From: a virus
Direction: 5' to 3' (one strand)
Length of the DNA stretch: 46,517 bases
Virus record (IMG/VR): IMGVR_UViG_3300010885_016202
Span: 1 to 46,517 of that record
Shown piece by piece: positions 6,196 to 37,505 of the stretch (the first letter of the stretch is position 1; each line of letters begins with the position of its first letter). The notes beneath the pieces were generated by a model. That model was not told where the DNA came from and did no database searches. It saw nothing but the letters and a program-made list of their open reading frames with translations. The translations under genes and the position numbers were made by a program.

Positions 6196-7907
6196 TTTTA
6201 TTTAAAAAAGTTCGTTGGAAAAACTTACTTAGTACTGGAAATACTTTTACAGAAGTTGAACTTACCCGATCACCAACAACGCTTATTATAGGCGAGAATG
6301 GTAGCGGTAAGTCGACCTTTATTGAAGCGATTTCCTTTGCTTTGTATGGCAAACCATTCAGAAAAATAAACAAGCCGCAACTTTGTAATACCATTAATAA
6401 TAAAAGTATGGTTACTGAGATTGAATTCAGTATCGGGTCAAAAGAATATTTGATTCGGCGTGGATTAAAACCTGCGCTGTTTGAAATCTTTCTTGATGGA
6501 ACAATGCTCAATCAAGAAGCAGCGTCAAAAGATTATCAAGAGATTTTAGAGAAGAATATTCTACGACTAACACACAAGTCGTTCTCACAAATCATCACAC
6601 TAGGATCGTCTACATTCATTCCGTTTATGCAACTCCCTGCACAAGCACGTAGAGAATTCATTGAAGATCTATTAGACATTCAAATCTTCTCTACAATGAA
6701 TATTCTTTTAAAAAATAGAATTCAAACAAATAGAGATGCCGTGCAAGTATGTACAAGCAACATTGCTTTGTGTCAGCAAAAAATTGAACTAAGTAAGAAG
6801 CATATCGATTCACTCAAACAGAACAATGATGAGATGATTGAGATGAAGCAGACTCTAATCAATGAGCATGCTGCTATGGTGCTTGATGCTCAGGAAAAGG
6901 TTGTTGTGATTAATGCACAGATAACTGATTTGCTTGCAAACACAACAGAACAAGATAAGGTTTCTAAGAAATTAAAAAAAGTTGTGATGCTTTCAAATGA
7001 ACTACAATACAAATTAGAAGATGTTCATAAGCACATCGATTTCTTTGAGAATCATGACAATTGCCCTACATGTACACAACAAATTGATTTTACATTTAAA
7101 GAGTCTACGTTAGTACAACGTAAAGACAAAAGTGGAGAAATTGCTAACGCATTACAACAGTTGATGACTGAGCAAAATGATCTATCACAAAAACTAGATG
7201 TCATTACGAGTATCAACACACAAATATCTGGATTGCATGCTGAGATCACAGATAACAATAACAAGATACGCTTGTATACTCGTTATATAGACGCAGTACA
7301 AAAAGAAATTGGTGCACTAACAAATCAAACATTGCAAATTGAAGCAGATGCATCAGAACTCAATGCGGCAAAGGTTGAGTTAAAGCAACTTGAGAAAGAA
7401 CAAGAAACATTGACAACCGAAAGAACTTTGCTAGGTACTGCTGCAACGCTATTGAAAGATGGCGGTATCAAGACAAAAATCATTAAGCAGTATATTCCTA
7501 TCATGAATAAACTGATTAATAAGTATCTAGCAGCGATGGATTTTTTTGTGCAGTTTGAATTAGATGAAAACTTCAATGAGAAGATCAAGTCAAGATTTCG
7601 TGATGAGTTCACCTATGCATCATTCTCTGAAGGTGAGAAGATGCGTATCGATTTGAGTTTGTTATTTTGTTGGCGCGCAGTGTCTAAGTTACGTAACAGC
7701 GCAAGTACAAACTTGTTGATCATGGACGAAGTGTTTGATAGTTCACTTGATGCATCAGGCACAGAAGAGTTCTTTAAGATCCTTAGTGGTATCACAGCAG
7801 ATACTAATGTGTTTATCATCAGTCATAAAGGTGATCAACTCATGGACAAGTTCACTAACATTATTAAATTTGAGAAAGTAAAAAACTTCAGTCAGATTGC
7901 CTCGTAG
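6192..7907 (+). CDS. 46: gp46, SbcC/Rad50-like ATPase subunit
   Basis: 571 aa SMC-like ATPase. Walker A is in IIGENGSGKSTFIEA (about residue 33). Two coiled-coil arms flank a CPTC zinc hook (about residue 292). The ABC signature is ASFSEGEKMRID and Walker B is LLIMDEVFDSSLD, both in the C-terminal quarter. Partner of gp47 in the end-processing nuclease complex. Length is close to T4 gp46 (560 aa). Confidence 0.95.
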   Translation: MILFKKVRWKNLLSTGNTFTEVELTRSPTTLIIGENGSGKSTFIEAISFALYGKPFRKINKPQLCNTINNKSMVTEIEFSIGSKEYLIRRGLKPALFEIFLDGTMLNQEAASKDYQEILEKNILRLTHKSFSQIITLGSSTFIPFMQLPAQARREFIEDLLDIQIFSTMNILLKNRIQTNRDAVQVCTSNIALCQQKIELSKKHIDSLKQNNDEMIEMKQTLINEHAAMVLDAQEKVVVINAQITDLLANTTEQDKVSKKLKKVVMLSNELQYKLEDVHKHIDFFENHDNCPTCTQQIDFTFKESTLVQRKDKSGEIANALQQLMTEQNDLSQKLDVITSINTQISGLHAEITDNNNKIRLYTRYIDAVQKEIGALTNQTLQIEADASELNAAKVELKQLEKEQETLTTERTLLGTAATLLKDGGIKTKIIKQYIPIMNKLINKYLAAMDFFVQFELDENFNEKIKSRFRDEFTYASFSEGEKMRIDLSLLFCWRAVSKLRNSASTNLLIMDEVFDSSLDASGTEEFFKILSGITADTNVFIISHKGDQLMDKFTNIIKFEKVKNFSQIAS

Positions 7908-7915
7908 GAAATATT

Positions 7916-8431
7916 ATGCCCATACTCACTCTAGTACATCACGACGATCCTATTCTTCGAACAGCGCTTGAACCTTTTGACTTTGCTAATCCTCCTACTG
8001 ATCCTGTACAGTTAGCAAAGGATCTTACAGAGACAATGATTCAAAACAAAGGATTAGGGCTTGCTGCAAATCAATGTGGATTGCCTTATAGAATGTTTGT
8101 TCTTACAGGACAGCAAGTTCTAGCATGTTTCAATCCAAAAATAATTGATACATCAACTACAACTGTTCTTCTTGATGAGGGGTGCTTGAGTTATCCCGGG
8201 CTTGCTATTAAAATTAAACGACCTAAGATGATACGAGTGCGGTTCACCATGCCCAATGGACAAACAGTTACACAAAAGTTTGATGGCATAACAGCGCGGT
8301 GTTTTTTACATGAACTTGATCATCTAGATGGCGTTCTACATATTAGTCGAGCAAACCCATACCACAAAGAGAAAGCAATGAAGATGCAAAAGGCTTATAA
8401 AAAGATTATGGAGAGAATGAAAAAACTATGA
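7916..8431 (+). CDS. def: Peptide deformylase
   Basis: 171 aa with all three family motifs: GLGLAANQCG (about residue 44), EGCLSYP (about 88) and HELDHLDG (about 131), which supply the Cys and two His metal ligands and the catalytic Glu. It removes the formyl group from nascent bacterial and phage proteins. Phage-borne copies are common in marine myoviruses. The start follows gene 46 by 8 nt and the stop overlaps the next gene by 4 nt. Confidence 0.95.
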   Translation: MPILTLVHHDDPILRTALEPFDFANPPTDPVQLAKDLTETMIQNKGLGLAANQCGLPYRMFVLTGQQVLACFNPKIIDTSTTTVLLDEGCLSYPGLAIKIKRPKMIRVRFTMPNGQTVTQKFDGITARCFLHELDHLDGVLHISRANPYHKEKAMKMQKAYKKIMERMKKL

Positions 8432-9021
8432 AATATTCGTCATATGACCAGATTGATTTTCTTTCTGGAATAAAAAAGATAGCAAAGCAAATTCGTGATA
8501 GTGGATGGTATCCAGACTATATCGTTGCCATGGCACGAGGTGGTGCAGTTGCTGGTGTATATCTGTCCCATGAACTAGATGTACCTGTTATCATTGTTAA
8601 TCTAAGCACAAGACATCATTGGTCAGATGAAATTAAAGCAGATGCCAAATCTCCTCTTATAAGTAAGATTTTGAAAGAACAAATGAATGTTCTTATTTTA
8701 GATGATATTGTAGACAGCGGAAAGACAATTAAAACTCTGCTTGACAAATGGAAGGTAAAGACGTATAATGATAATCAGATTAAGGTAGCATCTTTAATCT
8801 ATAACAACACTCAACCCGTCAAAGTATCTTTTTATGATAAATTGATTGATAGAGAGTTAGACGACTTATGGTATATTTTTCCATGGGAAGTCGAAAATGC
8901 TGGTGGTCTAAAAGCACTCAACCCACATAAAATATTCTGCGTGCTATCAAACTTACTCAGGAGAGGCAAGAGATGGCTAAATATATTTCTACTAAAACTT
9001 ACAGGCACATTGGGCCGGTAG
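8428..9021 (+). CDS. Type I phosphoribosyltransferase
   Basis: 197 aa. The PRPP-binding loop VLILDDIVDSGKTI (about residue 91) and an N-terminal YIVAMARGGAVAGVYLSHEL are typical of purine phosphoribosyltransferases of the xanthine/guanine/hypoxanthine group. It opens the deazaguanine gene cluster and could salvage guanine for GTP, the first substrate of that pathway; that link is inference. The last 16 codons overlap queD by 49 nt. Homologues often end near the FPWEVE motif (about residue 151), so the tail may be an add-on. Confidence 0.85.
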   Translation: MKYSSYDQIDFLSGIKKIAKQIRDSGWYPDYIVAMARGGAVAGVYLSHELDVPVIIVNLSTRHHWSDEIKADAKSPLISKILKEQMNVLILDDIVDSGKTIKTLLDKWKVKTYNDNQIKVASLIYNNTQPVKVSFYDKLIDRELDDLWYIFPWEVENAGGLKALNPHKIFCVLSNLLRRGKRWLNIFLLKLTGTLGR

Positions 9022-9446
9022 CATATCGTCAATGGCGTGCCGACAGTCATTGCAATCTAGTACACGGATATGCTCTATCATTCTATTTCGAGTTTGAGTG
9101 CGATACACTCGATGCTCGTAACTGGTGTATGGACTTCGGCGGATTACGTCCACTTAAAGAAAATCTAGTTGAATGGTTCGACCATACATTACTAGTCGCG
9201 CAAGATGATCCTCATCGTGACGCATTACTACACTTAGGCAAACTAGGCATCGCTAAGATCACTGAAGTTGAAAAGACAGGGTGTGAAGGCATTGCTGACT
9301 TCCTATATGAATATTGTAATACCATTCTATTAAAAGAATATGGCGAGCAAGATCGTATCTGGTGTTGCAAGGTAGAGGTTCGTGAAACCGACTACAACAT
9401 GGCAATGCGAGTTGGCCATCGTGAAGATGGTGAATTCAGTGAGTAA
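8973..9446 (+). CDS. queD: QueD-like 6-carboxytetrahydropterin synthase
   Basis: 157 aa T-fold protein: SHCNLVHGYALSFYFEFE near residue 27, WCMDFGGLRPLKENL near 52 and FDHTLLV near 70 align with the HKC...HGH, IIDFAELK and LDHHYLND segments of E. coli QueD. QueD turns 7,8-dihydroneopterin triphosphate into 6-carboxytetrahydropterin in preQ0 synthesis. Oddity: the usual HGH reads HGY, and the upstream AAH histidine position reads VAY, so zinc ligation may differ. AGGAG and GAGG lie before the ATG. Flanked by queE and folE. Confidence 0.85.
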   Translation: MAKYISTKTYRHIGPVAYRQWRADSHCNLVHGYALSFYFEFECDTLDARNWCMDFGGLRPLKENLVEWFDHTLLVAQDDPHRDALLHLGKLGIAKITEVEKTGCEGIADFLYEYCNTILLKEYGEQDRIWCCKVEVRETDYNMAMRVGHREDGEFSE

Positions 9447-10299
9447 GATTAAAGTCTCTGAGTTATTCTACTCACTACAAGGTGAAGGTATGTTTGCCGG
9501 CGTACCTTCAATCTTTCTACGTACCTTCGGTTGCAATTTCACTTGCAGCGGATTTGGTATGCCTCAAGGTGCAGTGTCTAAAGAACGAGATAGCATCGCT
9601 CTTACTCATAAAGACCTGCCATACAAAAACTATAATGATCTACCTTTGGTAAGCACTGGATGCGACTCCTATGCATCATGGGATGTTCGTTTTAAGAATC
9701 TATCACCTGTGATGGAAACAAAAGACATTGTAGATAAGATGCTTCAACTGCTACCCGGGCACCAATTTAATAATGACAAGCATTTGATTATCACAGGAGG
9801 TGAACCGCTTCTTGGTTGGCAGCGTTCTTATCCTGATCTTATTGATGAGTGTATTGATAACGGATTAACAGATATTACTTTTGAAACAAATGGCACACAA
9901 GTCATTACTCATGAGTTAAGTGAATACTTGACAAGTATTTCTGATGATGTTACTATTACATTCTCGGTATCACCCAAACTACCTGTCTCAGGTGAGCGTT
10001 GGGAAGATGCTATTAAACCAGATGTGGTTGCTCAGTATAGCAATATACGTAACAGCAATTTATATCTAAAGTTTGTTGTAGCATCAGCAAAAGATATTGA
10101 TGATGTTCGGAAAGCGATATTCGAATATGAAGATCGTCCCGAGTTGTGGGCAATACCTGTATATTTGATGCCTGTTGGTGGGACCAATGAAGGTTATCAA
10201 ATGAATGAGCGCAACGTCGCTGATTTCTGTCGAGACAATGGATATCGGTTCAGTCCTCGACTACAGGTTCCGCTTTATAAAAATGCATGGGGAACATAA
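9439..10299 (+). CDS. queE: QueE, 7-carboxy-7-deazaguanine synthase
   Basis: Radical SAM enzyme of about 286 aa. FYSLQGEGMFAGVPSIFLRT leads to FGCNFTC (Cys32, Cys36). The third cluster cysteine appears to be Cys75 in STGCDSYASWD, after an insertion of about 38 residues, so the usual CX3CX2C is split. IITGGEPLLGWQ and FETNGT follow. It contracts 6-carboxytetrahydropterin to 7-carboxy-7-deazaguanine. The GTG at 9439 after GGTGA is my preferred start; an ATG at 9427 is the alternative. It overlaps queD slightly and the next gene by one base. Confidence 0.88.
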   Translation: MSKIKVSELFYSLQGEGMFAGVPSIFLRTFGCNFTCSGFGMPQGAVSKERDSIALTHKDLPYKNYNDLPLVSTGCDSYASWDVRFKNLSPVMETKDIVDKMLQLLPGHQFNNDKHLIITGGEPLLGWQRSYPDLIDECIDNGLTDITFETNGTQVITHELSEYLTSISDDVTITFSVSPKLPVSGERWEDAIKPDVVAQYSNIRNSNLYLKFVVASAKDIDDVRKAIFEYEDRPELWAIPVYLMPVGGTNEGYQMNERNVADFCRDNGYRFSPRLQVPLYKNAWGT

Positions 10300-10967
10300 T
10301 GGCAAATGTTGATAGTATAGATAAAATTGTTTCGTACTTTTCATGCGTGACAAATGAGCAGTTCAGTTATAAAGGTAAGAAATATGAACCTAAGAGACTT
10401 CATGTTTCGCCGCTTTTGTTTCGTGGATTTACATGTCCTGCAGCTTGCGGAGGATGTTGCCCCCGTTTTTCTCTTGATTATTTGCCTACTGAGCCTCGCT
10501 CGTCTTTAGCAGAAAAGCGCTACATTTTGTTTTCTGACAAAGTCGTAGAGATCTACTCTGATATGCAAAAAGATCATAACAACAAGAAGTGCCGAAATTT
10601 AAATATGGAGAACGGACGTTGTGGCATCTATGAAGTACGTCCTTTCTCTTGCGACTTCGAATTGATACGCTTCCTTGTCGCAACAGATGACGAGAAGCGT
10701 GATAATATTATCACACAAAAACTCTTCGGTCGTGGATGGGCTATGCAGCGAATTGACGGTGATAGAGGTGCATTGTGTAAAATGACACCTATTGACGTTA
10801 ATACAGTTTCTGATACAATACGCAAATTGACTCGACTCAAGGACTGGTGTGAGCACTTTGGTATTAAAAATAATAAAGTGCAGACAATTATCGATTGGGC
10901 AAAGTCATTTGATAGTTATGAGAAAATACATTCTCTTATCATAGACAAAGAAGGTATGGTGATATGA
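10299..10967 (+). CDS. YkgJ-like cysteine-cluster protein
   Basis: 222 aa. Cysteine pattern: FTCPAACGGCC near residue 44, a CRNLNMENGRCGIYEVRPFSC stretch near 100-120 (written here only to show the C..L...CxIYExRPxxC signature), and further cysteines near 154 and 183. This matches the YkgJ family of putative zinc- or iron-chelating proteins of unknown function. GGGGA lies before the ATG at 10299, which overlaps the queE stop. Its place between queE and folE suggests a part in deazaguanine synthesis or cofactor supply; that is inference. Confidence 0.75.
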   Translation: MANVDSIDKIVSYFSCVTNEQFSYKGKKYEPKRLHVSPLLFRGFTCPAACGGCCPRFSLDYLPTEPRSSLAEKRYILFSDKVVEIYSDMQKDHNNKKCRNLNMENGRCGIYEVRPFSCDFELIRFLVATDDEKRDNIITQKLFGRGWAMQRIDGDRGALCKMTPIDVNTVSDTIRKLTRLKDWCEHFGIKNNKVQTIIDWAKSFDSYEKIHSLIIDKEGMVI

Positions 10968-11647
10968 TTTCACAGGATATTAAAAAGCGTCTAGCGGATA
11001 ACAAAGTTCGTTATTATGCAAATGACAATATTTCTAAATGGGTTACTGAAGAAGATTTAAAACACCTTGTAGATGAATTAACAGATAAGTTCGAAGGTGT
11101 GCTTGATACGCTGATCATCGACATCGCCAATGATCCTAACTCAAAAGGTACAGCGCGGCGTCTTGCTAAGATGTATTTTTATGAGATTATGGCAGGTCGC
11201 TATCAAGAAATACCAGAAGCAACTGCCTTTCCTAACACAGGTAAGTTGGGTCAAAGATCTTATAAAGGCATGCTCGTAGTTCGTTCTGAAATTCGTTCTA
11301 TGTGTAGTCATCATCACCAGCCAGTGAATGGCGTAGCGTATATTGGCATTCTACCTCATGATAAAGTTATTGGGTTATCTAAGTATTCTCGTCTTGCACA
11401 ATGGTGTGCTCGTCGTGGAACCTTGCAAGAAGAACTGTGCAATGACATTGCCAGCACAATTATCAAAGCGGCAGAGTCAGATGATGTAGGTGTATATCTA
11501 AAGTTGACCCATGGGTGTTGTGAGAATCGTGGCATCATGGCATGTGATAGCACTACACAAACAACTGTATTGAGTGGCGAATTTCACACACCTGATGTTA
11601 AAAAAGAATTCTTTGATAACATTCAAATACAGGAGATGGGTAAATGA
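10964..11647 (+). CDS. folE: GTP cyclohydrolase I (FolE)
   Basis: 227 aa. Family signatures are SMCSHHHQPVNG (zinc Cys and His, about residue 109), VIGLSKYSRLAQWCARR (about 130), LQEELCNDIA (about 149) and HGCCENRGI (about 181). It converts GTP to dihydroneopterin triphosphate, the entry step to preQ0. Its start overlaps the preceding stop (ATGA), inside the queDE operon. Confidence 0.95.
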   Translation: MISQDIKKRLADNKVRYYANDNISKWVTEEDLKHLVDELTDKFEGVLDTLIIDIANDPNSKGTARRLAKMYFYEIMAGRYQEIPEATAFPNTGKLGQRSYKGMLVVRSEIRSMCSHHHQPVNGVAYIGILPHDKVIGLSKYSRLAQWCARRGTLQEELCNDIASTIIKAAESDDVGVYLKLTHGCCENRGIMACDSTTQTTVLSGEFHTPDVKKEFFDNIQIQEMGK

Positions 11648-11883
11648 GTGAAGACCTACACAAGAGTCATGGCTTTGCTTTAAAGCAATGGGATAATTTA
11701 CAAGCAGAAAATAAACGTCTACTTGATATTCTAGAACAAATTGCACGTGTCTGGTATGACGGCGACGAAGTTATAAAAATTATTAATACTAATAAAGCAT
11801 ACATGATGAGACCCTCACTTCCACCACCAGAGTCTTATCCTGGCAGCGCACTTCCCAATGGAGACAAGTTCAGCGATGTCTAG
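11644..11883 (+). CDS. Hypothetical protein, 79 aa
   Basis: Starts MSEDLHKSHGFALKQWDNLQ with a short helical, coiled-coil-like N-terminal half and a Pro-rich tail (RPSLPPPESYPGSALPNG). Overlaps folE by 4 nt and the next small reading frame by 8 nt. I do not recognise it. Confidence 0.65.
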   Translation: MSEDLHKSHGFALKQWDNLQAENKRLLDILEQIARVWYDGDEVIKIINTNKAYMMRPSLPPPESYPGSALPNGDKFSDV

Positions 11884-12022
11884 CGTGGTTTATATGATTG
11901 ATGAATCTGAAGATTTGATTGACACAGAAATGCTTTTGCTGTATAATGAATCAATTAAACTTGAAAACAAATCTTTAAAGATTCTAAAGGATGCTCGTGA
12001 AGAAACTAGATTATGTGATTAG
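11876..12022 (+). CDS. Small hypothetical protein, 48 aa
   Basis: ATG at 11876, stop at 12020-12022; reads MSSVVYMIDESEDLIDTEML and continues as a charged helix ending in DARETRLCD. It overlaps the previous gene by 8 nt and the dpdA start by 26 nt. A consensus promoter lies inside its coding sequence, so it may be partly a leader for dpdA. Function unknown. Confidence 0.5.
   Translation: MSSVVYMIDESEDLIDTEMLLLYNESIKLENKSLKILKDAREETRLCD
11919..11947 (+). promoter_or_regulatory. Consensus sigma70 promoter upstream of dpdA
   Basis: TTGACA (11919-11924), 17-nt spacer and TATAAT (11942-11947), a perfect consensus. The predicted start of transcription is about 45 nt before the dpdA start codon, giving dpdA-queF-queC their own promoter apart from queDE-folE. 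Confidence 0.8.
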
Positions 12023-13343
12023 TGCTTGTGGCATGATGGGTGTCTTTACTCCCGATCATGAGGCACCATGGTATCCCCTCTACCAACGGGCAACGCTGTC
12101 TCTAATGAGAACGCTTAAACAGCAGATTGCTGCATCATGCCACAACACCAATCCTTTAGTGTCAACTTTGTATAATGCATACACAGAAAAAAATCACGTA
12201 GAAGAATTTAAACGACTAAGCAATCTTGGATCAGATTCTGTTTATGCAGACTCTGGCGGATTGCAAATCGTTACTGCTGGTAAGAGCATTACAGAAGAAA
12301 TTAAAAAAGAAATCTATAAGACACAAGCATACTCCGACTATGCTATGTGCTTTGACGTAATCGCACTCGAGTCAATAGCAAAAACTCGTACACGTAATGA
12401 GCGATCAAACATTGGTAATAAGATATTCAAAGCAGATAAGCATATAAAATCTGCTCATGCCACCGGCGACAATATTAAAGCACAAACAACTTACTTTAGA
12501 AATACAAACGCTAAAACAAAAGTAGTCATCATTGTACAGGGTAATAACTCACAAGACATGGTTGACTTCTATAATGGCATTGCTAGTCGATTGTCACCAG
12601 AAGATTATGAAAATATTGGCGGCATGGCAATTGCTGATACTTGTATTGGTAATGGCGAACTAGAGTCTATCGAGATGCTACGTGCTGCTAAAATGATCTC
12701 TGAGGTGTGTCATGAGAACGTGAGAAAGCATCTGCACGTATTAGGAGTCGGATCCATATCACGTATGCGACCCATCTTATACCTTCTTAAATCGGGTTAT
12801 CTAAGCGAATTTGAAAGAATTTCTTATGATTCAAGTTCACATACTTCTACATTCCAATATGGATTGCTAAAGTTAAATGGGACTTGCAAGTCAATTGGCA
12901 CTACTAAAACATATGCAGTTGACAAACATTTTAGAAATGTGTATAATTTATTCAAGGATACGTTCTCTGAGTACGTGACAGAAGACCAGTATATAAACAA
13001 TCTGTTTCCAGATACTAATACTGATTGGAAGTTCTCAACGATCAAGAATCGTATTCTACAAAACACAGATCATGATGCAATTGTGTCTACGTTACTTTGC
13101 AATGCAGCACACACCTATTATCAGATTCATAACTTCGTCACTAATCTTGATGTAGTGATGACAAATGAATATGGCAAGTTTAAAGAACACCCAGATGATA
13201 AAGATGTTGCATTGAATCATCTATTGAATGTTCAAACAGCACAAGATATGGAATATTGGATGAATAGTCGCAAAGGTCAAGTCACCTCTAAGCGTATTGT
13301 TCGTAGTACTGAATTATCAACCCTTGAAGGATTTTTCTCATGA
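11997..13343 (+). CDS. dpdA: DpdA-like DNA tRNA-guanine-transglycosylase homologue
   Basis: About 448 aa. TGT-type motifs: YADSGGLQIVTAGKSI near residue 84, MCFDVIALES near 116, GGMAIADTCIG near 207, HVLGVGSISRMRP near 243 and ISYDSSSHTSTFQYG near 273, where the catalytic aspartates of the family lie. I see no CxCxxC zinc site of tRNA-type TGTs. Phage DpdA exchanges guanine in DNA for a 7-deazaguanine base. AAAGG suits a GTG start at 11997; ATG 11991 is the alternative. The last residues TLEGFFS equal those of this phage's DNA polymerase, a likely clamp-binding tail. queF overlaps by 4 nt. Confidence 0.88.
   Translation: MKKLDYVISACGMMGVFTPDHEAPWYPLYQRATLSLMRTLKQQIAASCHNTNPLVSTLYNAYTEKNHVEEFKRLSNLGSDSVYADSGGLQIVTAGKSITEEIKKEIYKTQAYSDYAMCFDVIALESIAKTRTRNERSNIGNKIFKADKHIKSAHATGDNIKAQTTYFRNTNAKTKVVIIVQGNNSQDMVDFYNGIASRLSPEDYENIGGMAIADTCIGNGELESIEMLRAAKMISEVCHENVRKHLHVLGVGSISRMRPILYLLKSGYLSEFERISYDSSSHTSTFQYGLLKLNGTCKSIGTTKTYAVDKHFRNVYNLFKDTFSEYVTEDQYINNLFPDTNTDWKFSTIKNRILQNTDHDAIVSTLLCNAAHTYYQIHNFVTNLDVVMTNEYGKFKEHPDDKDVALNHLLNVQTAQDMEYWMNSRKGQVTSKRIVRSTELSTLEGFFS
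13318..13343 (+). repeat. 26-nt direct repeat shared by the 3' ends of dpdA and gene 43
   Basis: Positions 13318-13343 and 25251-25276 match at 25 of 26 bases; the one difference is silent (CTT/CTA for Leu). Both copies encode the C-terminus TLEGFFS, end in ATGA where the stop and the next start overlap, and contain the GAAGGA that serves as ribosome binding site for queF and for the gene at 25273. Confidence 0.95.
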
Positions 13344-14290
13344 CAGATTTAGATATCTCTCTTGCAAGATCTGCAATTGAACAACTTGCCGGTGTACATC
13401 TTGGCAAAGCAGGTGATGGCACTGCAGTTAAACCTTATGTCACTCCTGACCATGTTGACCCATCGTTACTCGTTGCTGTGCCTCGGGTGCTCAATCGTAC
13501 ACAATATGGTATTGACGAACTCAAGTTGCCCTTTGTAGGATATGATACATGGAACTGCTATGAGTTTTCTACATTAATGCCAAACGGGTTACCTCGCACA
13601 GGATTGTTACGAGTCGTATATCCTGCGGATTCACTTAACATTGTTGAATCAAAGTCATTGAAGTTGTATTTAAATTCATACAACATGGTTAAGCAAGATC
13701 ATGACGATGAATTTGTTATGACAGATGTTTGTGATAAAATTCGAAAGGATTTGTCACATGCTATTGATAACGATGATATAATAGTTGCGTACCATGACAA
13801 TGATGATGTTTTTAGTAAACCTATCACAGGCAATTTTGTTAATCTTGAAAAGACATTTGATTTTTCGAGCGTTGAATTTAATCAGTTCAATGAATCACCA
13901 GATATTCTGCAGACACAACCTGCAGAATCATATTGCACTCAGTATCACTCTAGTTTGCTAAGATCAAACTGTCGAGTGACCAACCAGCCAGATTGGGGTG
14001 ATGTGTACATTCATATTAAAGCAAATAAGTCTGTCATGCCTATATCATTGCTACAATATATTGTATCGATGCGTAAAGAAAATCATTTCCATGAAGAAAT
14101 TTGTGAGTGTATTTACAAGAGACTTTATGATATACTGAATCCAGATGAATTGCTAGTAGCATGTTTATACACACGGCGCGGCGGCATTGATATTAATCCT
14201 GTGCGAGCGTCATCCAATGAAGTGTTATGCAAGTATGCAACCAATTTAACTAATGCAGATACCGTAAACATTAAAACATTGAGGCAGTAG
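13340..14290 (+). CDS. queF: QueF, preQ0 (7-cyano-7-deazaguanine) reductase
   Basis: 316 aa, the long two-domain type like E. coli QueF (282 aa). The NADPH-binding segment ESKSLKLYLNSYN (about residue 103) and the active-site segment LLRSNCRVTNQPDWG (about 208) with its thioimide-forming Cys and the Asp of QPDWG are intact, as are HFHEEICE and YTRRGGIDINP. It should reduce preQ0 to preQ1. Lying between dpdA and queC, it implies that preQ1 may be the base inserted in DNA. There is an insertion near residues 120-140 relative to E. coli. Confidence 0.92.
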   Translation: MTDLDISLARSAIEQLAGVHLGKAGDGTAVKPYVTPDHVDPSLLVAVPRVLNRTQYGIDELKLPFVGYDTWNCYEFSTLMPNGLPRTGLLRVVYPADSLNIVESKSLKLYLNSYNMVKQDHDDEFVMTDVCDKIRKDLSHAIDNDDIIVAYHDNDDVFSKPITGNFVNLEKTFDFSSVEFNQFNESPDILQTQPAESYCTQYHSSLLRSNCRVTNQPDWGDVYIHIKANKSVMPISLLQYIVSMRKENHFHEEICECIYKRLYDILNPDELLVACLYTRRGGIDINPVRASSNEVLCKYATNLTNADTVNIKTLRQ

Positions 14291-14291
14291 T

Positions 14292-14453
14292 ATGATAGTT
14301 CCGAATGGACATTTTATAGCATCGTTATTCAAAAGCGCAATTCGTATTGTAGGTTGCATCGTATTAATTGAAGCTGCAGATTATACTGTGCAATTAGCAG
14401 GTATCGCATTTCTATTAGCAGAAGCGGTTGGTATCGTTGAGGAAATGGTATGA
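14292..14453 (+). CDS. Small hydrophobic protein, 53 aa
   Basis: Reads MIVPNGHFIASLFKSAIRIV and then a hydrophobic C-terminal half (VQLAGIAFLLAEAVGIVEEM) that could span or bind a membrane. It begins 1 nt after the queF stop and its stop overlaps the queC start (ATGA), so it is part of the operon. Function unknown. Confidence 0.6.
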   Translation: MIVPNGHFIASLFKSAIRIVGCIVLIEAADYTVQLAGIAFLLAEAVGIVEEMV

Positions 14454-15220
14454 AGCATGAGACTCCGTTTTTAAATGAAGCATTATTGCTTCTTCCTGAA
14501 ACAGATAAAAATGTAGTGAGTGTTATCTCAGGTGGATTAGATTCAACCATCATGACGTATATTCTAGTTGAGAAGTATGGAGCAGATCGTGTATTTGCGC
14601 TATCATACAACTACGGACAAAAGCAATGGTATGAACTCGAGATGGCAGCGTTGACCTGCAAACATCTTGGTATCAAGCACAAGGTTCTAAAACTTGATGT
14701 GCTGGGTGATATTGCTAAGACCATGTCAGCAAACATTGAAGGATCAGACGTTGCTATGCCGACTATCAAGGACGTACTAGGTGACCCACAACCTGCAACG
14801 TATGTTCCGTTTCGTAATATGATTCTTAACTCGTTAGCATTTTCTTATGCAGAAGCAAATAAAGCATCTCATGTGTTTACGGGATTACAGGTTCATGATG
14901 AGTATGGATATTGGGACACAACTCAACGATTCGTAGATTCTATGAATAGCGTATCAGCACAGAACAGAACACATAAAGTAGAACTATGTGCTCCTTTTAG
15001 TAAGCTAAGTAAGTATCAAGAATTATTAATTGTAAAAGATATGGGAAATGTGCTTGTAGAAAATACACTAACGTGTTATAATCCTGCAAACGGTAAGTAT
15101 TCTTGCGGTAAATGTCCTTCATGCGCTGAGCGTATTCAGAACTTTGCCAAAGCAGGAATCAAAGACCCTATTCCATATGCAGTTGATATTCCTTGGGACA
15201 AATTATTATGTGCAGCGTAA
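14450..15220 (+). CDS. queC: QueC, 7-cyano-7-deazaguanine synthase
   Basis: 256 aa PP-loop ATPase. SGGLDST at residues 27-33 is the ATP-pyrophosphatase loop. The C-terminal zinc site is the four cysteines of CYNPANGKYSCGKCPSCAER (about residue 205). It turns 7-carboxy-7-deazaguanine into preQ0 with ATP and ammonia, via an amide intermediate. Its 3' end overlaps the amidotransferase gene by 13 nt, which recalls the Gat-QueC fusions of other phages. Confidence 0.95.
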   Translation: MKHETPFLNEALLLLPETDKNVVSVISGGLDSTIMTYILVEKYGADRVFALSYNYGQKQWYELEMAALTCKHLGIKHKVLKLDVLGDIAKTMSANIEGSDVAMPTIKDVLGDPQPATYVPFRNMILNSLAFSYAEANKASHVFTGLQVHDEYGYWDTTQRFVDSMNSVSAQNRTHKVELCAPFSKLSKYQELLIVKDMGNVLVENTLTCYNPANGKYSCGKCPSCAERIQNFAKAGIKDPIPYAVDIPWDKLLCAA

Positions 15221-33374: not shown

Positions 33375-34241
33375 ATGCCTCGTGGTGTTCCAAATGCTGG
33401 TTTCCGTAAGACTAAGAACTTTGCTGCTAAGAACGAAGCAGTCGCTGTTAAGATCCCAGCTGCTCCTATCAAGGTAGAGACAATAGAAGAGATCGATGCT
33501 CGTATTAGCGAGCGGTTTGAGGTCACAGGCGACCTCGTAGACATGGCTATCACGGGTGCTGCCCGTGCGCTGATCATCTCGGGTCCTGGTGGTCTTGGTA
33601 AGAGTCACACTGTAGAAGAGAAGCTCGCTGCTTGGGATCCGAAGGGTATTCGTCACACTATCGTCCGTGGTAAGATCCTTGCCCCAGACCTCTATATCAT
33701 GTTGCACAAGCACTCAGATAAGAACCAGGTCCTGGTGTTCGATGATGCCGACAATATCTTCTGGGATGACATTTCACTCAACATGCTCAAAGCAGTTTGT
33801 GACACCACCAAGAAGCGTGTGGTGTCTTATATGACACAAGGCAAGCTGTATGATGACGACTCAGCGACGGCACTGCCTAAGCAGTTTGAGTTTCACGGTA
33901 GCATCATCTTCATCACCAACACAGACTTCGATGAGCTGATTCAGCGTGGATCACGTCTTGCTCCGCACTTGCAAGCAATGATGACTCGTGCCCAGTACAT
34001 TGATCTTAGCATCAAGACGAAGCAGGATTACATTGTCCGTATCCGTCAAGTGCTTAAGATGGGTCTGCTAAGCCAACAAGGCTTAGACGAGGTTGCTGCT
34101 GGTGATGTCATGACCTTCATTGAAAGCAACCAAGACACACTGCGTGACTTGTCGCTTCGTGTCGCCATCAAGCTCGCTGCAATTCGTAAGACACACCCTG
34201 CCAAGTGGGAAAAGATCGCTCGTATCACAGTCTGCAAATAA
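33375..34241 (+). CDS. AAA+ ATPase
   Basis: 288 aa. A basic tail MPRGVPNAGFRKTKNFAAKN precedes the ATPase domain with Walker A IISGPGGLGKSHTVEEK (about residue 69), Walker B VLVFDDADNIF (about 119), a sensor-1-like IIFITNTDFDE (about 177) and an Arg-containing QRGSRLAPHLQAMMTR. Similar ATPases occur in exo-T4 phages without a defined role. GGAAG lies before the ATG. Driven by promoter copy D. Confidence 0.85.
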   Translation: MPRGVPNAGFRKTKNFAAKNEAVAVKIPAAPIKVETIEEIDARISERFEVTGDLVDMAITGAARALIISGPGGLGKSHTVEEKLAAWDPKGIRHTIVRGKILAPDLYIMLHKHSDKNQVLVFDDADNIFWDDISLNMLKAVCDTTKKRVVSYMTQGKLYDDDSATALPKQFEFHGSIIFITNTDFDELIQRGSRLAPHLQAMMTRAQYIDLSIKTKQDYIVRIRQVLKMGLLSQQGLDEVAAGDVMTFIESNQDTLRDLSLRVAIKLAAIRKTHPAKWEKIARITVCK

Positions 34242-35036: not shown

Positions 35037-35111
35037 TGGGGAGTAGCTCAGCGGTAGAGCAGTTGACTGTTAATCAATTGGTCGTAGGTTCGATCCCTAC
35101 CTTCCCAGCCA
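35037..35111 (+). tRNA. tRNA-Asn (GTT)
   Basis: Acceptor TGGGGAG pairs with CTTCCCA; D-arm GCTC/GAGC; anticodon loop CTGTTAA with anticodon GTT; T-arm GTAGG TTCGATC CCTAC; discriminator G and encoded CCA. First of a cluster of three. Confidence 0.95.
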
Positions 35112-35164
35112 TTTGTGTATGGTATATGTTGTAACGTGGGATGTCCCCACATTAGGAGAAGAAG

Positions 35165-35317
35165 ATGAGTATAGATAAAGCAGAAGCTGAACGATTGAAT
35201 AGGATTGAGGCTTTAAACAATGCCGTGAGGCATAGACTCCGTGAAGAAAAGCCAGATGAAGTTGTAATTGCGGCACAGAAATATTTTAATTTCTTGCAAG
35301 GCAACGGAAACAACTAA
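35165..35317 (+). CDS. Small hypothetical protein, 50 aa
   Basis: Between tRNA-Asn and tRNA-Ala: MSIDKAEAERLNRIEALNNA, a charged helix, ending KYFNFLQGNGNN. AGGAG precedes the ATG. No family recognised. Confidence 0.6.
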   Translation: MSIDKAEAERLNRIEALNNAVRHRLREEKPDEVVIAAQKYFNFLQGNGNN

Positions 35318-35326
35318 ACGATAATT

Positions 35327-35400
35327 GGGCTGTTAGTATAATGAGATTATGCCGCCCTTGCACGGCGGAGACGAGAGTTTGATTCTCTCACGGTCCACCA
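35327..35400 (+). tRNA. tRNA-Ala (TGC)
   Basis: Acceptor GGGCTGT pairs with ACGGTCC and has G3-T70, the alanine identity pair. Anticodon stem CCGCC/GGCGG with loop CTTGCAC (anticodon TGC); T-arm GAGAG TTTGATT CTCTC; discriminator A and encoded CCA. Confidence 0.93.
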
Positions 35401-35404
35401 AATT

Positions 35405-35487
35405 GGGTAGTGAGTAGCACTGGTGACTACAGCAGACTGTAAATCTGCCGTCTTATGACATACTTGGTTCGACTCCAAGACTGCCCA
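35405..35487 (+). tRNA. tRNA-Tyr (GTA)
   Basis: Acceptor GGGTAGT pairs with ACTGCCC; anticodon stem GCAGA/TCTGC with loop CTGTAAA (GTA); a long variable arm (CGTCTTATGACAT) as expected for tyrosine; T-arm CTTGG TTCGACT CCAAG. The CCA end is not encoded (CAA follows). Confidence 0.92.
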
Positions 35488-35542
35488 CAACGGTTATATG
35501 ATGATGTGATGTGATATGTGTTTAATAATAAAAGGAAAGACT

Positions 35543-36097
35543 ATGATTAAGACTATTTTAAGTTCGATTGCAATGACCTTGCTTGTTTCAGGATCAGCGT
35601 TTGCCGACAGTGTAACCTTTGGTGCACATGGTGGCGACAATGACCAACGTTACTACGATTTGAGCGTGTCTCATTCAGTAACAGGCACAGGCTTTGTTGT
35701 TAGTGGGCAAGCTGAAACAGAGCAAGCTTCGACTAACACACTACTGACCCAGAAGTACTCTGCTTCATTTGGATATAAGCTTGATGCTCCCATGGGCATT
35801 AGCGTTGTTCCATCTTTTGAGTACGGCGTGAAACTTTTGCCAGGTACGAATGATGAGTCATTCTATGGCGCAGGTGTTAGCGTGAGTCGTCAAGTTGTAG
35901 GTCCTGTAAGCGCAACAGTAGCTTATCGTTATCGTAGCAATTTTAGTGGCACAACAATCTCAGAGAATCGTGAGAGTGCGTCATTAGATTGGGCGGTAAC
36001 ACCCAAGCAGACATTGGGCTTGACTGCTCATACTTACAACGGAGCCAATACAGCATTGGTTCATGTGTACGGCGTTTCTTACAAGTATAGCTTCTAA
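35543..36097 (+). CDS. Phage-encoded outer-membrane beta-barrel-like protein
   Basis: 184 aa. MIKTILSSIAMTLLVSGSAF then ADS is a clear signal peptide with an AxA cleavage site near residue 21. The rest alternates polar and aromatic/aliphatic residues in strand-length repeats, and the end VHVYGVSYKYSF with terminal Phe is typical of outer-membrane barrels. AAAGGA supports the ATG at 35543. Possible roles are receptor masking or changing the host surface; inference only. A hammerhead ribozyme starts right after its stop codon. Confidence 0.8.
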   Translation: MIKTILSSIAMTLLVSGSAFADSVTFGAHGGDNDQRYYDLSVSHSVTGTGFVVSGQAETEQASTNTLLTQKYSASFGYKLDAPMGISVVPSFEYGVKLLPGTNDESFYGAGVSVSRQVVGPVSATVAYRYRSNFSGTTISENRESASLDWAVTPKQTLGLTAHTYNGANTALVHVYGVSYKYSF

Positions 36098-36163
36098 GAC
36101 CTCTGATGAGTCCGTGCAATTCGGACGAAACAAGCTCTCTTCATTGAGAGCTTGTCAGGACAC
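36098..36163 (+). ncRNA. Type I hammerhead ribozyme
   Basis: Conserved core CTGATGA at 36103-36109 and GAAA at 36127-36130. Stem II is GTCCG/CGGAC (36110-36114 with 36122-36126). Stem III is ten perfect pairs, ACAAGCTCTC with GAGAGCTTGT (36130-36139 with 36146-36155), loop TTCATT. The cleavage triplet is GTC ending at C36156; stem I is CCT/AGG, then imperfect. Helix I is open, so type I. Cleavage would leave an 18-nt leader before the ATG at 36175. Confidence 0.9.
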
Positions 36164-36174
36164 TGGAGTATAGT

Positions 36175-36432
36175 ATGAATTGGATTATGTTTATTGGTGT
36201 ATTTTTAGCCATGATGATAACAGATATCATGTGGGCAAAGTACACACTTGCTGTTGCATTTCTTAAGCCTGTCTTATCTGGAATCTATAGCGCTGTTATT
36301 ATACTCATGGGTGCAGTTACTGTTGTTGCATACGTAGAAGATAGGTATATGATTATACCAGCGATGCTAGGTGCCTTTGTAGGGACTTATTATACAATAA
36401 AACGAGCAAGAGACTATGAAGAAGAAAAGTGA
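36175..36432 (+). CDS. Small membrane protein, 85 aa
   Basis: MNWIMFIGVFLAMMITDIMW with two or three more hydrophobic segments (LSGIYSAVIILMGAVTVVAY, IIPAMLGAFVGTYYTI) and a charged C-terminus DYEEEK. GGAG lies just before the start and just after the hammerhead cleavage site, so self-cleavage would place the ribosome binding site near a new 5' end. Function unknown. Confidence 0.75.
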   Translation: MNWIMFIGVFLAMMITDIMWAKYTLAVAFLKPVLSGIYSAVIILMGAVTVVAYVEDRYMIIPAMLGAFVGTYYTIKRARDYEEEK

Positions 36433-36625: not shown

Positions 36626-36776
36626 ATCAAAGTTTAGCGACTATTCTCCATTAATGCTTGCACTCGAGCGCCTACATGCAGCAACTCAAGCTAGAGACCG
36701 CTGTAAGAATGCCTGGGCTAAGAACTATTGGAACCTTATAATCAAGCGATTAGAGCGCCAAGTAAAACACGGTTGA
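36618..36776 (+). CDS. Small hypothetical protein, 52 aa
   Basis: MTESKFSDYSPLMLALERLH then a basic helix ending IIKRLERQVKHG. Its TGA stop is inside the TTGACA box of the next promoter. Function unknown. Confidence 0.6.
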   Translation: MTESKFSDYSPLMLALERLHAATQARDRCKNAWAKNYWNLIIKRLERQVKHG

Positions 36777-36801
36777 CATTCTAGATTGGTTCTGTTATCA
36801 T
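36773..36801 (+). promoter_or_regulatory. Sigma70 promoter with overlapping late-like element
   Basis: TTGACA (36773-36778), 17-nt spacer, TATCAT (36796-36801). CATAAATA at 36799-36806 overlaps and is one base off the late consensus. Transcription from either would start almost at the ATG of the next gene (36808), suggesting a leaderless or very short 5' end. Confidence 0.65.
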
Positions 36802-36807
36802 AAATAA

Positions 36808-37425
36808 ATGAATATGATACTAACCCTAAACAAATACTTACTCGAAGAGAGTGACCATACACTCTATATTTTTGATATAGACGACACCCTCTTTCGGACC
36901 TATGCAAAAATCCATGTGCTAGATGCCAATGGAAAGATTGTACGCAGTCTTAATAACCAAGAATATAACACGTACAAAGTGCTTCCTGGACAGACATTGA
37001 AGTTCGATGAGTTCAGAGACTCAGAGAAGTTTGATATGACATCTAGGCCTATCACTAAGATGTTGAACAAGGTTAAGTTTTTACAGAAACAAATTGCAGG
37101 TACGAAAAGCAAAATTATCTTTGTGACTGCACGAGAAGATTTTGATGACAAAGAAAAGTTTCTTAATGCTTTTAGAAAGCGTAAGATTGACATAGACCAG
37201 ATTCATGTGTACCGCACTGGCAATGACCACGGACCCGAGAGTAAGGGTGAAAAGAAAGCTAAAGTGATTCGCATGTATCTCTCGAGTGGCGACTTTATGA
37301 AGACCGAGATGTATGATGATAACATGGAAAATCTAGAAGCATTTAAAAGCTTACAACGTGAGTTTCCAGATATATCATTTGAGGCATTTCAAGTATTTCA
37401 TGATGGGTCGACTAATAACGTTTGA
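36808..37425 (+). CDS. HAD-superfamily hydrolase
   Basis: 205 aa. YIFDIDDTLFRTYAKI (about residue 20) holds the nucleophile and acid/base aspartates; IIFVTARED (about 98) is motif II; KKAKVIRMYL is the motif III lysine region; EMYDDNMENL (about 170) is the acidic motif IV. The family includes phosphatases such as the 3'-phosphatase half of T4 Pnk, but no kinase domain is present. Substrate unknown. No clear ribosome binding site precedes the ATG. Confidence 0.8.
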   Translation: MNMILTLNKYLLEESDHTLYIFDIDDTLFRTYAKIHVLDANGKIVRSLNNQEYNTYKVLPGQTLKFDEFRDSEKFDMTSRPITKMLNKVKFLQKQIAGTKSKIIFVTAREDFDDKEKFLNAFRKRKIDIDQIHVYRTGNDHGPESKGEKKAKVIRMYLSSGDFMKTEMYDDNMENLEAFKSLQREFPDISFEAFQVFHDGSTNNV

Positions 37426-37429
37426 CTCA

Positions 37430-37505
37430 GCCCATTTAGCACAGCTGGTAGTGCACCTGATTTGTAATCAGGGGGTCGGGAGTTCGAATCTCTCAGTGGG
37501 CACCA
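37430..37505 (+). tRNA. tRNA-Thr (TGT)
   Basis: Acceptor GCCCATT pairs with AGTGGGC; anticodon stem CCTGA/TCAGG with loop TTTGTAA (anticodon TGT); T-arm with GTTCGAATC loop; discriminator A and encoded CCA. Starts 4 nt after the HAD gene stop. Confidence 0.93.

What the first reader, a model, noticed from the sequence alone, without database searches (positions are those of the whole stretch)
36098..36163. Hammerhead ribozyme between an outer-membrane-like gene and a membrane protein gene
All invariant core residues are present, with a 10-bp stem III, 5-bp stem II and a GTC cleavage site at 36156. It starts directly after the stop codon at 36097, and cleavage would leave only 18 nt, including GGAG, before the next start. 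It could separate the two messages and set their stability or translation. Stem I has only three clean pairs, so tertiary contacts may matter.
Basis: partly seen in the sequence, partly recalled or inferred. Interest (0 to 1): 0.85.

Follow-up and report, generated by a model that had tools for sequence, protein, structure and literature searches.

The report
Self-cutting RNA between phage genes
A T4-like phage carries a short self-cutting RNA (a hammerhead ribozyme) that overlaps the end of one gene and sits just before the next, so it probably cuts the shared message in two; many similar phage ribozymes are placed in the same way, which gives a clue to what they are for.

Summary
Window 36098-36163 (+) holds a complete type I hammerhead: every core residue, stem II 5 bp, stem III 10 bp, GUC with predicted cleavage after C36156. 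It is the only match in the window; 400 shuffled windows gave none. A covariance model built from 44 other phage hammerheads (window left out) finds it at 37.9 bits, E 8e-9, as the sole hit. Rfam scores stay below gathering cut-offs.

Two corrections. The element does not start after the stop codon: stem I continues through an internal loop that holds the UAA stop (36095-36097) and predictably closes with a 5-bp helix pairing the gene's last codons with the next gene's Shine-Dalgarno. And the weak stem I is not unusual among relatives.

The window ribozyme belongs to a recognisable phage set: loop II UGNAAU with UAA/UAG 4-5 nt before the core. Across 197 phage type I hammerheads, 122 (59% of flank clusters) overlap the upstream ORF's stop codon, against 5.8% at random positions.

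Most likely it splits a two-gene message. No cleavage was measured. Phage hammerheads are known, so this is a new member of a known kind; I did not find the stop-codon overlap in the open papers searched.

The parts
35543..36097 (+). Upstream gene, 184 aa, secreted and beta-rich; the start at 35543 has an SD (AAAGGAAAG), the ORF call at 35516 is probably too long; stop UAA at 36095-36097
   Evidence: no Pfam/PHROG family
36090..36094 (+). Distal stem I, 5' strand (GCUUC), inside the last codons of the upstream gene
   Evidence: MFE structure
36095..36099 (+). Stem I internal loop UAAGA on the 5' side; UAA is both the stop codon and the likely tertiary-contact motif
   Evidence: register shared with relatives
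36100..36102 (+). Proximal stem I, 5' strand CCU (G36098 and A36099 face C36161 and A36160: one further possible G-C pair beyond an A.A mismatch)
36103..36109 (+). Hammerhead core C3-U-G-A-U-G-A9
36110..36126 (+). Stem II (5 bp) with loop UGCAAUU, of the UGNAAU type
36127..36129 (+). Core G12-A13-A14
36130..36155 (+). Stem III, 10 bp, loop UUCAUU
36156..36156 (+). C17 of the GUC triplet; predicted cleavage between 36156 and 36157
   Evidence: position follows from the hammerhead family
36157..36159 (+). Proximal stem I, 3' strand AGG
36165..36169 (+). Distal stem I, 3' strand GGAGU, containing the Shine-Dalgarno of the next gene
36175..36432 (+). Downstream gene, 85 aa, hydrophobic (predicted membrane) protein of no known family

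Best explanation
This is a cis-acting type I hammerhead ribozyme. As RNA polymerase passes, stems II and III fold, stem I closes around the upstream gene's stop codon, and loop II (UGCAAU) docks on the UAA-containing internal loop of stem I. The RNA then cuts itself after C36156. The upstream message ends in a 2',3'-cyclic phosphate right behind the 10-bp stem III hairpin. The downstream message starts with a 5'-hydroxyl, an 18-nt leader and its Shine-Dalgarno. This gives the two genes separate messages with ends that are poor starting points for host RNases. Because stem I overlaps the stop codon, a ribosome terminating on the upstream gene should hold the ribozyme open, so cleavage would occur before the first ribosome or between ribosomes. 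Shown here: sequence, structure by comparison, placement and stop-codon overlap. Inferred: cleavage, RNA ends, effect on stability and translation, ribosome interference.
For: All core residues and three stems; 0 in 400 shuffles; held-out covariance model 37.9 bits, E 7.9e-9. With stem II left free apart from the core-adjacent G-C pair, and loop UGNAAU required, 59 of 59 distinct phage hits pair in stem II and 55 parse as complete type I hammerheads. In 44 aligned relatives the two outer stem I pairs, which were not used for selection, are 89-95% paired with many two-sided changes. Placement: of 103 first-set relatives 40 have both an upstream ORF stop and a downstream SD+start, against 2.7% at random and 0 on the antisense strand. 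122 of 197 overlap the stop codon, against 5.8% at random; 79 of 133 after clustering by flank homology. Loop UGNAAU is associated with UAA/UAG 4-5 nt before the core, Fisher 8e-7, 4e-6 after clustering. No promoter-like or terminator-like site lies between the two genes.
Against: No cleavage data. Stem I has only 3 contiguous pairs and an A.A mismatch; in flanks longer than about 20 nt the folding model mostly gives it probability 0.02 or less, though the window ranks 48 of 101 among relatives in the short context. Rfam Hammerhead_1 gives only 13.2 bits against a cut-off of 34. The only relative with both flanking genes is a 99.6%-identical contig, so conservation at this locus is untested.
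Confidence: 0.75

Rival explanations
1. An active hammerhead whose main role is translation-gated control: a ribosome on the stop codon blocks folding, so heavy translation of the upstream gene keeps the two-gene message intact, and poor translation lets it be cut.
For: UAA lies in the stem I internal loop; stop-codon overlap recurs at fixed registers (the UGA of the core, and UAR 4-6 nt before it) in 59% of flank clusters. The Shine-Dalgarno is predicted to be in the distal stem I in the short context.
Against: The overlap could simply reflect compact genomes that reuse UAA/UGA letters the ribozyme already contains. Shine-Dalgarno release by cleavage is not consistent across folding contexts.
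Confidence: 0.3
2. One half of a ribozyme pair that excises or circularises an RNA, as in retrozymes and viroid-like RNAs.
For: Some phages carry several hammerheads in a row (up to 8 in the record behind L037).
Against: Only one hammerhead in the 46.5-kb window and one in the 19-kb sister contig.
Confidence: 0.04
3. A hairpin acting as terminator or mRNA 3'-end stabiliser, with the hammerhead core a coincidence or decayed.
For: Stem III is a strong 10-bp hairpin.
Against: No U-run; every core residue intact; zero shuffles match.
Confidence: 0.06
4. A relict or slow ribozyme without a present role, carried along with the gene cassette.
For: Weak stem I; no independent relative at the same locus.
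Against: Core, tertiary-contact letters and placement all intact and typical of the set.
Confidence: 0.1

Closest known systems
HHphage hammerhead of haloviruses HF1/HF2 (Perreault et al. 2011, PMC3088659)
   Same: Hammerhead a short distance upstream of a phage start codon (13 nt there, 18 nt after cleavage here) in a polycistronic transcript; there an mRNA 5' end maps within 3 nt of the cleavage site.
   Different: HHphage is a variant from a haloarchaeal virus; here the core is canonical, loop II is UGCAAU, and the phage is T4-like.
Type I hammerhead ribozymes (Schistosoma, newt; Rfam RF00163)
   Same: Open stem I, closed stems II and III, loop II facing a stem I internal loop, GUC cleavage.
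   Different: 10-bp stem III instead of a short one; Rfam score below cut-off; single copy, not satellite DNA.
Bacterial and phage type I hammerheads, including tandem sets around small ORFs (Perreault 2011; reviewed in PMC6155905)
   Same: Intergenic, co-directional with small genes, phage-linked.
   Different: Those texts do not mention overlap with the upstream stop codon in the passages searched.
Theta ribozymes of gut phages (PMC10879173)
   Same: Small self-cleaving ribozymes placed exactly against phage genes.
   Different: HDV-like fold, cut at tRNA 3' ends; the window ribozyme lies between protein genes.

Membership tests
Hammerhead ribozyme | Core CUGANGA ... GAAA ... UH with A15.1-U16.1 | tested here: met
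   36103-36109, 36127-36130, 36155-36156
Hammerhead ribozyme | Three helices meeting at the core | tested here: met
   Stem II 5 bp, stem III 10 bp, stem I 3 bp plus distal helix; MFE structure
Hammerhead ribozyme | Self-cleavage giving 5'-OH and 2',3'-cyclic phosphate | not testable with these tools
   needs an in vitro assay
Type I permutation | Stems II and III closed by loops, stem I open | tested here: met
Rfam Hammerhead_1 (RF00163) | Score at or above the curated cut-off (34 bits) | tested here: not met
   13.2 bits; the match stops inside the long stem III, so the model fits this shape poorly
Phage type I hammerheads with UGNAAU loop (set defined here) | Match to a covariance model built without the window | tested here: met
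   37.9 bits, E 7.9e-9, sole hit
Phage type I hammerheads with UGNAAU loop (set defined here) | UGNAAU in loop II and UAA/UAG 4-5 nt before the core | tested here: met
   UGCAAU; UAA with 5 nt between it and the core
Retrozyme or viroid-like element | Paired ribozymes flanking a unit | tested here: not met
   single site in the window and in the sister contig

The most novel reading that the evidence does not exclude
Phage type I hammerheads form a general class that builds the upstream gene's stop codon into the ribozyme, either as the tertiary-contact UAA/UAG or as the UGA of the catalytic core, so that translation termination and self-cleavage exclude each other and polycistronic message processing is gated by ribosome traffic.
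Probability: 0.25. Interest if true: 0.8.

Novelty: new member of a known kind. Interest (0 to 1): 0.5.

Why it matters
What hammerheads do in phages and bacteria is described as an open question in the field (PMC6155905). This site is a clean, complete example in a T4-like phage. The set around it shows a rule, overlap with the upstream stop codon at a few fixed registers, that can be tested directly with reporters and 5'-OH end mapping.

Tried and rejected
Rfam at gathering threshold: no hit; permissive search: weak Hammerhead_3 and RAGATH-1 matches with partly wrong pairing. Relatives of the flanking genes for synteny: only the near-identical sister contig; the gene at 33375 gave none. A diverged relative of the gene at 36808 (L127) has no hammerhead upstream. 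A direct DNA search of known phages with the window found nothing useful. First covariance model R1 took a poor automatic structure and was replaced by R2. Shine-Dalgarno sequestration and release: holds in the short context but not in longer ones, so it is not claimed. Circular-RNA and terminator readings rejected as stated under rivals. Bacterial genomes with loop UGCAAU are all Legionella, but with short stem III and another stem I, so not close relatives.

Full report
The observation. The sequence at 36098-36163 was read directly. It contains CUGAUGA at 36103-36109, a 5-bp stem II closed by UGCAAUU, GAAA, a 10-bp stem III closed by UUCAUU, and GUC ending at 36156. A descriptor requiring core, stem II of at least 4 bp, stem III of at least 5 bp and stem I of at least 3 bp matches once in the window and never in 400 dinucleotide shuffles on both strands.

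What was missed. Minimum-free-energy folding of 36085-36180 gives the hammerhead junction unprompted and adds a distal helix, 36090-36094 with 36165-36169. Between the proximal CCU/AGG and this helix lies an internal loop whose 5' side is UAAGA; the UAA is the stop codon of the upstream gene. The element therefore begins inside the reading frame. In longer flanks the nearest-neighbour model prefers other partners for stem I, but it does so for most relatives too: the window ranks 48th of 101 in the short context. These models ignore core and tertiary energies, so this is neutral.

Family evidence. Rfam families score below cut-off: Hammerhead_3 24.1 bits, RAGATH-1 24.7 bits, Hammerhead_1 13.2 bits. 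From 44 of these, window excluded, a covariance model was built. It finds the window site at 37.9 bits, E 7.9e-9, with no other hit. In that alignment stem II letters were fixed by the search and the three inner stem I pairs were required by my filter, so they prove nothing; the fourth and fifth stem I pairs were free and are 95% and 89% paired with many two-sided changes.

The UGNAAU set. A second search fixed loop II as UGNAAU and left stem II free apart from the core-adjacent G-C pair. All 59 distinct hits pair in stem II and 55 form complete type I hammerheads, which is strong evidence that this loop and core belong together. Among 197 parsed type I hammerheads in all viral loci, UAA/UAG lies 4 or 5 nt before the core in 33 of 52 with this loop and 32 of 135 with other loops (Fisher 8e-7; 4e-6 with one per flank cluster). 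Reading this pair as the known stem I/loop II tertiary contact is an inference from the described structures (PMC6155905). The window has both parts.

Placement. In 103 distinct relatives, 40 have an upstream ORF stop and a downstream SD plus start in the expected places, against 2.7% at random positions and none on the antisense strand. In 122 of 197 the stop codon overlaps the ribozyme, against 5.8% at random; after clustering by flank homology 79 of 133, with peaks at the UGA of the core (26) and at 4-6 nt before it (34). A depositor's annotation shows the same: in Pseudomonas phage BroderSalsa a CDS ends at the UGA of the core. ORFs were called by a simple length rule, so the numbers are approximate.

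Context. The window is a T4-like phage fragment: DNA polymerase about 50% identical to Synechococcus myoviruses, with UvsX, UvsW, DnaB-type helicase, sliding clamp and clamp loader. The upstream gene probably starts at 35543 behind AAAGGAAAG. Its product has a signal-peptide-like start and ends in phenylalanine; a single-sequence model is all beta but of low confidence, pLDDT 46. The downstream product is small and hydrophobic. No promoter-like or terminator-like site was found between them; one good promoter-like site lies later, at 36773-36801.

Mechanism. Cleavage would split a co-transcribed pair. Established hammerhead chemistry gives a 2',3'-cyclic phosphate behind the 10-bp hairpin on the upstream message and a 5'-hydroxyl on the downstream one (PMC6155905). 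From general knowledge of bacterial mRNA decay such ends are poor substrates for 5'-monophosphate-dependent RNase E and for 3' exonucleases; this was not tested. A ribosome stopped at UAA would cover the 5' strand of stem I and part of the core, so termination and cleavage should compete; this too is inference.

Known and new. Phage and bacterial hammerheads upstream of genes are known, and for haloviruses HF1/HF2 an mRNA end maps next to the cleavage site (PMC3088659). The window ribozyme is a new member of that kind. The stop-codon overlap at fixed registers was not found in the papers searched, but the library holds open-licence papers only, so I do not claim priority.

Noticed in passing
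L043:6483-6540 and 6633-6689; L041:8399-8458: In two other viral contigs (one 347 kb) the hammerhead cleavage site falls exactly before the first base of a tRNA-Tyr gene, 3 of 3 cases tRNA-Tyr, with stem I using the 5' strand of the acceptor stem. These would form tRNA 5' ends without RNase P; theta ribozymes are known at tRNA 3' ends.
   Followed up: partly
L037:1325-6906 (contig IMGVR_UViG_3300041956_000313, 79257-84838): Eight type I hammerheads within about 5.6 kb; those read in full sit between small genes, each before a Shine-Dalgarno; another contig (L112) has seven.
   Followed up: partly
L252-L261: In 84,980 species genomes the loop UGCAAU hammerhead pattern occurs only in Legionella (10 records), with a short stem III and a conserved stem I.
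   Followed up: no
window 8428-15220: 7-deazaguanine/queuosine-type genes (QueC-, QueD-, QueE-like, two GTP cyclohydrolase-like), suggesting modified phage DNA or tRNA.
   Followed up: no
window 36808-37425: Gene downstream of the ribozyme matches a polynucleotide kinase PHROG (E 5e-7) and carries a DIDDT motif as in HAD phosphatases; enzymes of that kind act on the RNA ends a hammerhead makes, but the link is speculative.
   Followed up: partly
window 35037-35488 and 37430-37505: The ribozyme lies between tRNA-Asn, -Ala, -Tyr upstream and tRNA-Thr downstream, but not adjacent to any of them.
   Followed up: yes
L004, L034, L066, L088, L102, L115: Some pattern hits in viral contigs parse as type III hammerheads instead of type I.
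   Followed up: no
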